Assembly (NCBI RefSeq): GCF_000311785.1 | Contig: NZ_HE978536.1 | Span: 116,287-180,286 of the forward strand | Origin: Brevibacillus massiliensis | Lineage (GTDB): Bacteria; Bacillota; Bacilli; Brevibacillales; Brevibacillaceae | Direction: 5' to 3' | DNA length: 64,000 nt | Shown here: positions 24,797 through 27,184 of the stretch, piece by piece | How the letters are laid out: every line of letters starts with the position of its first letter | Numbering within the stretch: the first letter of the stretch is position 1 | Made by a program: the position numbers and the translations under genes | The notes under the pieces: model-generated | The model's input: only the letters and a program-made list of their open reading frames with translations | What the model was told of the DNA's origin: nothing | Database searches by the model: none

Positions 24797-24826
24797 TTGG
24801 AGAATCTTCGGGCGATATGTTATAGT
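24797..24826 (+). promoter_or_regulatory. Promoter of trpEG
   Basis: TTGGAG (24797-24802) is separated by 18 nt from TATAGT (24821-24826), with a TGT extension directly upstream of the -10 box. The predicted start near 24833 places the NAG repeat array at the very 5' end of the mRNA. Confidence 0.65.
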
Positions 24827-24832
24827 TTTGGG

Positions 24833-24884
24833 TAGCACAGAAGAGATGAGTCAGGTTGGTTGAGTTGAGTAGAGCAAAGTAGAG
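24833..24884 (+). promoter_or_regulatory. TRAP (trp RNA-binding attenuation protein) binding site in trpEG leader
   Basis: NAG triplets recur every 5 nt: TAG 24833, CAG 24838, GAG 24843, GAG 24848, CAG 24852, GAG 24862, GAG 24867, GAG 24872, AAG 24877 and GAG 24882. The slot at 24857 has TGG. That makes eleven registers, matching the eleven subunits of the TRAP ring, which binds (G/U)AG repeats spaced by two or three bases when tryptophan is present. Six registers are GAG or TAG; the others are weaker. In bacilli such sites attenuate trp transcription or block translation. The TRAP gene mtrB is not in the window. Confidence 0.75.
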
Positions 24885-24907
24885 AAAAAAGAATATGATT
24901 TTACATG

Positions 24908-24951
24908 CTTTTCTCAATTTTTCCCCCTGTTCTCCTCTGAGAAAAGGAGGA
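24908..24951 (+). promoter_or_regulatory. Mutually exclusive hairpins involving the trpEG Shine-Dalgarno sequence
   Basis: CTTTTCTC (24908-24915) is perfectly complementary to GAGAAAAG (24939-24946). TTCTCCT (24930-24936) can instead pair with AGGAGGA (24945-24951), burying the ribosome-binding site. The upstream end of the TRAP array, GAGAAAA (24882-24888), can pair with TTTTCTC (24909-24915). TRAP binding would free that segment and favour a structure that captures part of the Shine-Dalgarno sequence. No GC-rich hairpin followed by a T-run is present, so control appears translational, unlike the classical B. subtilis trp attenuator. Confidence 0.55.
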
Positions 24952-24960
24952 ATGAAAAAG

Positions 24961-27141
24961 ATGAGTATTTTAGCTTCGTTAAAAATCAGCCCCGAAACCA
25001 TCCACCTTAGCACCCCTTCCGGAATCCAGGTTACGAGAACGATCGCCCCTGTAGATGGAAGCGCGTCAATCGACACACTGTTGCAAAAAATCGACACAAA
25101 CAAGGGGGCCGTTTTCTCCAGTAAAATGGATTTCCCCGGCCGCTACTCCCGTTGGGATATCGGTTTTGTCAACCCGCTGCTGGAATTGAAATCTTTTGGT
25201 AAAAAATTCCAATTACATGCGCTGCAGGAACGCGGCTGCGTCGTGCTGACAGCGATCGCCAACCATTTGGCCGAACACGAGTTGGTTACGATTGAGCACA
25301 AAGACAGCCGTTCCCTATCGGGTACCATCAATTCCGGTCCGACGCAGGCGTTTCACGAGGACGAAAGAACCCTGCAGCCTTCGATCTTTTCGCTCATTCG
25401 CACGATAAAAGAGCTGTTCTCTACAGATACGGACCCATTTCTCGGGTTGTACGGCGCTTTTGGCTACGACCTGGTTTTTCAATTTGAGCCAATGGAACTG
25501 CGGCACAAGCGCGATCCGGAGCTTTCCGATCTCATCCTGTATTTCCCTGACCAATTGACCATCATTGACCATCAGCTCTCATGTTCGTACCGATTGTCCT
25601 ACGATTTTTCCTACAGGGGCCGGTCCACGGCTGAAATTCCCCATCAGGAAGTGCTCTCCGAGGCCGCAGCAAGGCCGGCTTCGGCCCATGACCGTTACCA
25701 AAAGGGCAGATACGCCAAGCTGGTGGAAACGGCAATCGAATCCTTTAAGGTCGGCGATTTGTTTGAGGTGGTGCCGTCGCATACCTTCGTGAGAGACTGT
25801 ACCGGCACGCCATCCGACCTGTTTACCAGGCTGATGCAGATCAATCCCAGCCCCTACGGCTTTTTCATCAACCTGGGCAGCGAATACCTCGTGGGATCGT
25901 CTCCGGAAATGTACGTCCGGGTGACGGGAAACAAGGTGGAAACCTGTCCGATTTCCGGGACGATCAGGAGGGGGGCTGACCCGATCGAAGATGCCGACCG
26001 CATCAAGGAATTGCTCAACTCTGCCAAGGATGAATCAGAGCTGACCATGTGTACGGACGTCGACCGCAATGACAAGTCCCGGATTTGCATTCCCGGCTCG
26101 GTGAAGGTAATCGGCAGAAGGCAGATCGAGCTCTATTCCCATCTGATCCATACCGTTGACCACATCGAGGGAACGTTGGACCCCAAATTTGACGCCCTCG
26201 ACGCTTTCATGACCCACATGTGGGCGGTGACCGTCACCGGTGCCCCGAAAAGATCGGCGATCAAATGGATCGAGCAGCACGAGGATTCCCCGCGGAGATG
26301 GTACGGCGGCGCTGTCGGCTTTTACAGCTTTGACGGCAATTTGAATACCGGTCTGACCTTGCGGACGATCCGCATCAAAAATGGCATCGCGGAAATCCGC
26401 GTAGGAGCCACCCTGCTGTACGACTCGGTCCCGGAAGCCGAGGAAGAAGAAACCTTGACCAAGGCCAGGGCGCTGTTTAAAGCTCTGGAACCAGGGCAAG
26501 CCGCAATCGAAGCCGATCCGCAGCAGCCAAAAGACGCCGGAGAAGGGCTTAACATCCTGTTCGTTGACCACGAAGATTCTTTCGTTCACACCCTGGCCAA
26601 CTACTTTAAACAGTTCAGCGCGAAGGTATCCATTCTGCGCTCTGAATTTGCCAGAGAGCGGCTGCGCTCTGATGCAGACTTCGACCTGGTGCTGCTGTCG
26701 CCCGGTCCCGGCCGCCCCAGCGACTTTAAGCTCAGCGAGACGATACAGCTGTGCCTGGAAAAAAACATCCCCATTTTTGGCGTCTGTCTGGGGCTGCAGG
26801 GGATGATAGAGTATTTTGGTGGCAAACTTGATGTTCTGCCTTACCCCTATCACGGAAAAGTTTCGGTGATCGAGGTCACAGAACAAAGCTTCCTGTGGGA
26901 AGGGATTGCCGGTCCGATCGCGGTCGGCAGATACCATTCCTTGCACGCGCAGCAAGTGCCGGCTTGTTTTGCCGTCACAGCCAAGACATCGGACGACGTC
27001 GTGATGGCCATCGAGCACAAATCGCTCCCAGTATGGGCCGTACAATTTCATCCGGAATCGATCATGAGCGCCCGCAATGAAGCGGGAATGACGATGATCC
27101 GGAATGTGCTGAACAAAATCAGGACAAAACCACAGCCATAA
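24961..27141 (+). CDS. trpEG: Fused anthranilate synthase TrpE-TrpG
   Basis: This single 726-residue chain makes anthranilate from chorismate and glutamine, the first step of tryptophan synthesis. Residues 1 to about 515 are the TrpE component (INPSPYGFFINLG, then PISGTIRRGADPIEDADRIK, SELTMCTDVDRNDKSR and GAPKRSAIKWIEQHE). About 530-726 is the TrpG glutaminase with nucleophile C609 in FGVCLGLQG and the HPES motif. Its sequence and fusion order resemble the alphaproteobacterial one-chain TrpE(G) (TIGR01815 type), not the split bacillus enzyme. The ATG at 24961 is ten bases after AAAGGAGG; the ATG at 24952 is too close. No other trp genes follow. Confidence 0.93.
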   Translation: MSILASLKISPETIHLSTPSGIQVTRTIAPVDGSASIDTLLQKIDTNKGAVFSSKMDFPGRYSRWDIGFVNPLLELKSFGKKFQLHALQERGCVVLTAIANHLAEHELVTIEHKDSRSLSGTINSGPTQAFHEDERTLQPSIFSLIRTIKELFSTDTDPFLGLYGAFGYDLVFQFEPMELRHKRDPELSDLILYFPDQLTIIDHQLSCSYRLSYDFSYRGRSTAEIPHQEVLSEAAARPASAHDRYQKGRYAKLVETAIESFKVGDLFEVVPSHTFVRDCTGTPSDLFTRLMQINPSPYGFFINLGSEYLVGSSPEMYVRVTGNKVETCPISGTIRRGADPIEDADRIKELLNSAKDESELTMCTDVDRNDKSRICIPGSVKVIGRRQIELYSHLIHTVDHIEGTLDPKFDALDAFMTHMWAVTVTGAPKRSAIKWIEQHEDSPRRWYGGAVGFYSFDGNLNTGLTLRTIRIKNGIAEIRVGATLLYDSVPEAEEEETLTKARALFKALEPGQAAIEADPQQPKDAGEGLNILFVDHEDSFVHTLANYFKQFSAKVSILRSEFARERLRSDADFDLVLLSPGPGRPSDFKLSETIQLCLEKNIPIFGVCLGLQGMIEYFGGKLDVLPYPYHGKVSVIEVTEQSFLWEGIAGPIAVGRYHSLHAQQVPACFAVTAKTSDDVVMAIEHKSLPVWAVQFHPESIMSARNEAGMTMIRNVLNKIRTKPQP

Positions 27142-27148
27142 CGTATAA

Positions 27149-27184
27149 AACGCGGGGGCACTTTACTTCAAGTGTCCCCGCGTT
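27149..27184. terminator. Bidirectional terminator between trpEG and the EamA gene
   Basis: A 14-bp stem AACGCGGGGGCACT (27149-27162) with AGTGTCCCCGCGTT (27171-27184), containing one G-T, has an 8-nt loop. AT-rich tails lie on both sides. Confidence 0.8.

What the first reader, a model, noticed from the sequence alone, without database searches (positions are those of the whole stretch)
24797..24961. TRAP-protein binding site and Shine-Dalgarno switch before a stand-alone trpEG
NAG-type triplets occupy ten of eleven registers at a strict 5-nt pitch from 24833 to 24884, starting at the predicted transcript 5' end. Eleven matches the subunit number of the TRAP ring. Downstream, CTTTTCTC/GAGAAAAG and TTCTCCT/AGGAGGA are mutually exclusive pairings around the ribosome-binding site, and no intrinsic terminator is visible. 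This suggests TRAP controls translation of an isolated fused anthranilate synthase, unlike the transcription attenuator in front of the B. subtilis trp operon.
Basis: partly seen in the sequence, partly recalled or inferred. Interest (0 to 1): 0.75.

Follow-up and report, generated by a model that had tools for sequence, protein, structure and literature searches.

The report
TRAP translation switch before fused trpEG
The start of this tryptophan-synthesis mRNA carries a docking site for the tryptophan-sensing protein TRAP that doubles as an RNA latch, so that binding should hide the ribosome site and shut the gene off; the same device sits before this fused gene in many Bacillota, where it appears to be an undescribed variant of a known control.

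Summary
Window 24833-24884 carries ten NAG triplets in eleven registers, next to a predicted promoter. One pitch is 4 nt, so it is not strictly 5. The genome encodes TRAP (mtrB beside folE). Its supraoperon has lost trpE, keeping a TRAP site plus an intrinsic terminator before trpD. The only anthranilate synthase found is the stand-alone fused trpEG.

Of 67 other trpEG loci, 54, all Bacillota, carry 8-14-triplet arrays; all 34 of those genomes searched have mtrB. Three TRAP-less Bacillota have a T-box instead. Each leader places the Shine-Dalgarno sequence in a hairpin without a U-run. Blocking the array raises the cost of freeing it in 55/55 leaders (window 2.0 to 10.6 kcal/mol), largely a generic effect but with a specific excess. 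The antisequester lies inside the array (GAGxCAGG with CCUGUUCUC), explaining the 4-nt pitch. pabA has lost its TRAP site in this genome and mostly in fused-gene genomes. Verdict: new variant of a known TRAP mechanism; TRAP binding itself is untested.

The parts
24798..24826 (+). sigma-A-like promoter: TGGAGA (24798-24803), 17 nt, TATAGT (24821-24826), TG before the second hexamer
   Evidence: consensus match only
24833..24884 (+). TRAP-site array: ten NAG triplets in eleven registers, pitch 5 except one of 4 (24848 to 24852), sixth register TGG
   Evidence: conserved in 54 other trpEG leaders
24848..24883 (+). antisequester strand inside the array; core GAGTCAGG 24848-24855 (GAGAACAGG or GAGACAGG in most relatives with the same arm)
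24900..24932 (+). strand that pairs with the array in the free state (TTTAC, TGCTTT, CTCAATTT, CC, CCTG, TTC)
   Evidence: helix probabilities 0.73-0.99
24926..24938 (+). conserved element CCTGTTCTCCTCT, the anti-Shine-Dalgarno arm shared with antisequester pairing
   Evidence: alignment; co-occurrence with GAGxCAGG
24921..24952 (+). SD-sequestering hairpin predicted when the array is occupied: 24921-24934 with 24939-24952
   Evidence: probability 0.94-0.98; SD opening cost 10.6 kcal/mol
24946..24950 (+). Shine-Dalgarno GGAGG
   Evidence: 10 nt from ATG 24961
24961..27141 (+). trpEG, fused anthranilate synthase components I and II, 726 aa, monocistronic
   Evidence: (NF010081 and TIGR01815 over cut-off)
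27149..27184 (+). GC-rich inverted repeat after the stop codon, likely transcript end (between convergent genes)
   Evidence: sequence read; inference

Best explanation
The trpEG leader is a self-contained TRAP translation switch. Without tryptophan-bound TRAP, part of the NAG array (core GAGUCAGG, extended over 24848-24883) pairs with 24900-24932, including CCUG of the conserved CCUGUUCUCCUCU element, so the Shine-Dalgarno sequence is only weakly held and trpEG is translated. When tryptophan is plentiful, TRAP wraps the array, frees the downstream strand, and 24921-24934 folds onto 24939-24952, hiding GGAGG and repressing translation. Shown by sequence and comparison: the array, its conservation, mtrB, the predicted SD hairpin, the complementarity, the stand-alone gene, the T-box in TRAP-less relatives. 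Inferred: TRAP binding, tryptophan dependence, direction and size of the effect, translational rather than transcriptional action.
For: mtrB in the genome beside folE, with the RNA-contact residues F32, E36, K37, D39, K56, R58 listed in PMC3184956 present. Arrays in 54 other trpEG leaders, all Bacillota, and in none of the proteobacterial trpEG loci scanned. 34/34 array-bearing genomes searched have mtrB; 10 of 13 array-less ones lack it, and three mtrB-less Bacillota carry a T-box before trpEG. SD predicted paired in all 55 leaders; SD-opening cost without the array median 9.8 versus 2.8 kcal/mol for GGAGG-like starts in the window, 27 sites including trpEG itself. Array blocked: SD costlier to open in 55/55, window 2.0 to 10.6. 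GAG[AT]1-2CAGG in the array and CCTGTTCTC in the arm co-occur: 20 both, 2 array only, 0 arm only, 33 neither. Own array:arm pairing beats clade-swapped pairing: mean -16.1 versus -14.0 kcal/mol, 1 of 20,000 permutations. Rewiring: trpE gone from the supraoperon and the pabA TRAP site lost here, present in 17 of 18 relatives with unfused genes.
Against: No binding or expression data. The free/bound energy shift is largely generic: shuffled or swapped GA-rich arrays also lower the SD cost, and the native array is better than swapped in only 15/20 leaders (Wilcoxon p about 0.05; better than shuffled in 12/20). Some leaders (e.g. L036, L047, L048) show almost no predicted shift. Only seven of the window's triplets fall in the preferred G/UAG class. 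By mean per-base unpaired probability the window's SD was 0.05 free and 0.20 bound, the opposite direction to the opening-cost measure (run with the array drawn too long, from 24823). Three mtrB-bearing genomes (L054, L068, L086) have trpEG without an array. Related species are not independent events.
Confidence: 0.85

Rival explanations
1. TRAP binds the array but acts mainly on transcription: bound TRAP pushes RNA polymerase off at the A+U-rich stretch after the site, without an intrinsic terminator.
For: TRAP can terminate transcription without the trp attenuator if an A+U-rich region follows its site (PMC3913778). The window stretch 24885-24922 is A+U-rich.
Against: It does not explain the conserved SD hairpin at the start codon or the array:arm complementarity that differs by clade. 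It could act in addition.
Confidence: 0.15
2. TRAP represses simply by occupying the mRNA 5' end, with no refolding; the SD hairpin is constitutive.
For: The SD hairpin is predicted even in the free state in many Paenibacillus-type leaders, and most of the array effect is reproduced by shuffled arrays.
Against: The array ends 36-104 nt upstream of the SD (61 nt in the window), too far for direct occlusion. SD-opening cost roughly doubles when the array is blocked. Array:arm co-variation between clades.
Confidence: 0.12
3. The array is a purine-rich stretch without regulatory meaning.
For: Window triplet quality is modest; a few dinucleotide shuffles of the 64-nt array segment alone reach its score (21 of 10,000).
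Against: Conservation of arrays in 54 loci, near-complete co-occurrence with mtrB, and T-box replacement in mtrB-less Bacillota.
Confidence: 0.02

Closest known systems
B. subtilis trpEDCFBA leader (TRAP attenuator plus trpE SD-sequestering hairpin)
   Same: NAG array bound by TRAP; mutually exclusive RNA structures; a TRAP-dependent hairpin hides the Shine-Dalgarno of the first gene (PMC12288461).
   Different: There the array precedes an intrinsic terminator and a polycistronic operon. Here there is no terminator, one gene (a fused trpEG), the array lies at the predicted transcript 5' end, and the antisequester core GAGxCAGG lies inside the array and imposes a 4-nt pitch.
TRAP sites overlapping the SD of pabA/trpG (folate operon), the B. 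subtilis trpG type
   Same: TRAP controls translation of anthranilate synthase component II (own knowledge of B. subtilis trpG); relatives of this genome with unfused genes have such arrays over the pabA start.
   Different: Those work by direct overlap with the ribosome site; the trpEG leader works at a distance through a hairpin. This genome has lost the pabA site.
T-box leader
   Same: Tryptophan-pathway control in front of the same trpEG gene in TRAP-less Bacillota (L061, L076, L091).
   Different: T-boxes sense uncharged tRNA, not TRAP; none was found in this window by the Rfam gathering-threshold scan.

Membership tests
TRAP-controlled leader | about 11 (G/U)AG repeats separated by 2-3 nt | tested here: met
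   Ten NAG in eleven registers; seven are G/UAG, one spacer is 1 nt. Met with deviations.
TRAP-controlled leader | mtrB in the same genome with RNA-contact residues | tested here: met
   residue list from PMC3184956
TRAP-controlled leader | array conserved in front of orthologues | tested here: met
   54 other loci
TRAP-controlled leader | mutually exclusive structures, one overlapping the array | tested here: met
   predicted; largely generic energy effect
TRAP-controlled leader | tryptophan-dependent TRAP binding | not testable with these tools
   needs purified TRAP and RNA
trp attenuator (TRAP-controlled intrinsic terminator) | intrinsic terminator between array and gene | tested here: not met
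   none in the trpEG leader; present in the same genome's trpD leader
TRAP-dependent SD-sequestering translational control | hairpin burying the SD when TRAP is bound | tested here: met
   predicted; not shown by experiment
anti-TRAP circuit | rtpA (PF15777) in the genome | tested here: not met
   no match at E <= 0.001; the assembly is 98.7% complete

The most novel reading that the evidence does not exclude
A portable, terminator-free TRAP translation switch travels with the fused trpEG gene across Bacillota. Its antisequester is written into the protein-binding array itself, and gaining it goes with rewiring of the TRAP regulon: pabA is freed from TRAP, in some lineages trpE is lost from the operon, and TRAP-less relatives use a T-box at the same gene. 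In this genome it may be read by a 12-subunit ring.
Probability: 0.55. Interest if true: 0.65.

Novelty: new variant of a known kind. Interest (0 to 1): 0.56.

Why it matters
TRAP is a textbook RNA-binding regulator studied mostly in B. subtilis, where termination and SD sequestration act in one leader. Here the translational half appears to stand alone, in many genera, in front of one gene, giving a clean system to measure it. The loss of the pabA site in genomes with the fused gene is a natural experiment: regulation seems to follow the amidotransferase that serves tryptophan, freeing folate synthesis. The T-box replacement in TRAP-less relatives shows two unrelated tryptophan sensors at the same gene.

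Tried and rejected
Mean per-base SD accessibility was misleading for the window: the array had been extended to 24823 by the scanner and one SD base is bulged in the bound hairpin. I then corrected the array to 24833-24884 and changed the measure to the energy needed to open the SD; both results are reported. My first antisequester reading, GAG with the CTC of CCUGUUCUC, has probability 0 in the window; there GAG pairs with TTC 24930-32 while CAGG:CCUG holds. A claim that folding energy alone proves the switch was rejected after swapped- and shuffled-array controls. Anti-TRAP was sought and not found. Seven literature searches in the open-access library showed no report of a TRAP-controlled fused trpEG; subscription journals are not covered, so novelty is provisional. 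The tree places the window's trpEG basal to the Paenibacillus-type group on a long branch; horizontal gain versus ancestral retention was not decided.

Full report
Check of the observation. The leader reads GGGTAGCACAGAAGAGATGAGTCAGGTTGGTTGAGTTGAGTAGAGCAAAGTAGAGAAA from 24830. A chain scorer that rewards NAG triplets at 5-6 nt pitch gives 24833-24884 as by far the best chain in 64 kb on both strands (19.5; the next separate chain 12.0), and 1 of 3000 dinucleotide shuffles of 24797-24961 reaches it. Shuffling only the purine-rich 64 nt reaches it 21 times in 10,000. Ten of eleven registers are NAG; one step is 4 nt. The promoter-like site ends at 24826, so the array begins near the transcript start, as in many relatives.

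The regulator. One mtrB gene, E 2.3e-39, lies next to folE as in B. subtilis; all 39 genomes searched in the order, this one included, have mtrB. Residues listed as RNA contacts in PMC3184956 are present, and Lys15, Asp71 and Thr72 match the 12-subunit B. halodurans form. No anti-TRAP was found.

The gene and its history. trpEG encodes a 726-aa fused anthranilate synthase (NF010081, TIGR01815), with minus-strand ORFs on both sides. In the order it is the only fused copy among 39 genomes. The supraoperon on contig C9 runs aroF-aroB-[TRAP array, terminator AAAATCCAGGACTCTTCCTGGATTTTTT]-trpD-trpC-trpF-trpB-trpA-hisC-tyrA-aroA without trpE (gene names read from translations, trpD confirmed). Two relatives keep array, terminator, hairpin and trpE in that place. 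Besides trpEG the trpE model finds in this genome only the pabB-like gene next to pabA, under its cut-off. So one genome shows both arrangements: a TRAP site with terminator on trpDCFBA, and a TRAP site without terminator on trpEG.

Conservation. Of 67 trpEG loci scanned, 54 carry arrays, all from Bacillota: Paenibacillus, Saccharibacillus, Tumebacillus, Cohnella, Fictibacillus, Sporolactobacillus, Pullulanibacillus, Shouchella, Terrilactibacillus, Caenibacillus, Hydrogenibacillus, Anaerobacterium and one unnamed MAG. The proteobacterial loci have none. Of 531 pitches, 430 are 5 nt and leaders hold 8-14 triplets. mtrB is found in 34/34 array-bearing genomes searched and missing in 10 of 13 without an array; in Terrilactibacillus sp. 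S3-3 it is split by a frameshift. The three mtrB-less Bacillota have a T-box. The contrast is partly phylogenetic, since many mtrB-less cases are proteobacteria.

Structure. In all 55 leaders the SD is predicted paired in a hairpin at the start codon. Without the array its opening cost has a median of 9.8 kcal/mol, against 2.8 for 27 GGAGG-like starts in the window, a set that includes trpEG itself at 9.2. In the Paenibacillus-type group the arm CCTGTTCTCCTC is present in all 20 aligned leaders including the window. The array of every leader with CCTGTTCTC holds GAG[AT]1-2CAGG (20 both, 2 array only, 0 arm only, 33 neither). In Sporolactobacillus-type leaders AGAAGAGC pairs with GCUCUUCU instead (12 both, 6 array only, 0 arm only, 37 neither). 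Across 15 clades, own array:arm duplexes average -16.1 kcal/mol; permuting clades gives -14.0, sd 0.45, with 1 of 20,000 as low. The motif definitions were chosen after looking at the sequences, so the Fisher p-values are descriptive.

Window fold. Free: 24848-24883 pairs with 24900-24932 and the SD keeps only TCCTCT:GGAGGA (p 0.61), cost 2.0 kcal/mol. Array blocked: TTCC:GGAA, CCT:AGG and TTCTC:GAGAA (p 0.94-0.98), cost 10.6. Blocking the array makes the SD costlier to open in 55/55 leaders, median 4.5 to 9.6. Controls: shuffled or swapped arrays also lower the cost; the native one is better than swapped in 15/20 (mean 0.92 kcal/mol, p 0.048) and than shuffled in 12/20 (0.93, p 0.044). The direction is therefore partly built in, because GAG repeats resemble a Shine-Dalgarno and compete for its complement; the specific excess is modest. 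One search, with another measure and a mis-extended array, gave the opposite direction for the window.

Rewiring. pabA in 17 of 18 readable relatives with unfused genes has an array scoring 16.5-21.5 over its start; this genome scores under 6. In 22 fused-gene genomes 19 score 8 or less, with 9.5, 12 and 15.5 in P. caui, Hydrogenibacillus and P. eucommiae. Ten of the genomes with fused trpEG also keep a canonical trpE over the model cut-off (an eleventh hit, in Fictibacillus, lies beside pabA and is read as pabB), so the fused gene replaces trpE in some lineages and adds to it in others. These are counts of species, not of independent losses.

Judgement. What it works like: B. subtilis TRAP control of trpE translation (PMC12288461). 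Membership: it meets the testable features of a TRAP leader and fails that of the trp attenuator (no terminator). Binding, tryptophan dependence and repression are inferred.

Noticed in passing
G000:C3:329715-329764 (L191, minus strand): A nine-triplet NAG chain overlaps the SD and start of a second trpB (TIGR00263 over cut-off) away from the trp operon: a candidate further TRAP target. The reversed control pattern also gave 7 hits in the genome, so single hits are weak.
   Followed up: partly
G000:C6:262800-262837 (L195, minus strand): Eight NAG triplets overlap the start of a branched-chain-type ABC substrate-binding lipoprotein; possible TRAP target or chance.
   Followed up: partly
L124 about 10213-10031, minus strand: Between the trp terminator and trpD lie an SD-like hairpin (CCTCTTCTCCATTACAGGAGAGG) and a short ORF beginning ATGTTGTATTTTCC, perhaps a remnant of trpE.
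   Followed up: partly
L068 upstream of 6001 (same region read in L130): Syntrophomonadaceae MAG has mtrB but no array before trpEG; its leader contains GTGGCACCGCGGC, resembling a T-box fragment, with no Rfam match at the gathering score.
   Followed up: partly
L088, L096, L098: trpEG reads as a short ORF (premature stop or frameshift) in the Cohnella cholangitidis, Paenibacillus sp. RC67 and Terrilactibacillus sp. S3-3 records; the last also has a split mtrB. Sequencing error or decay, not decided.
   Followed up: no
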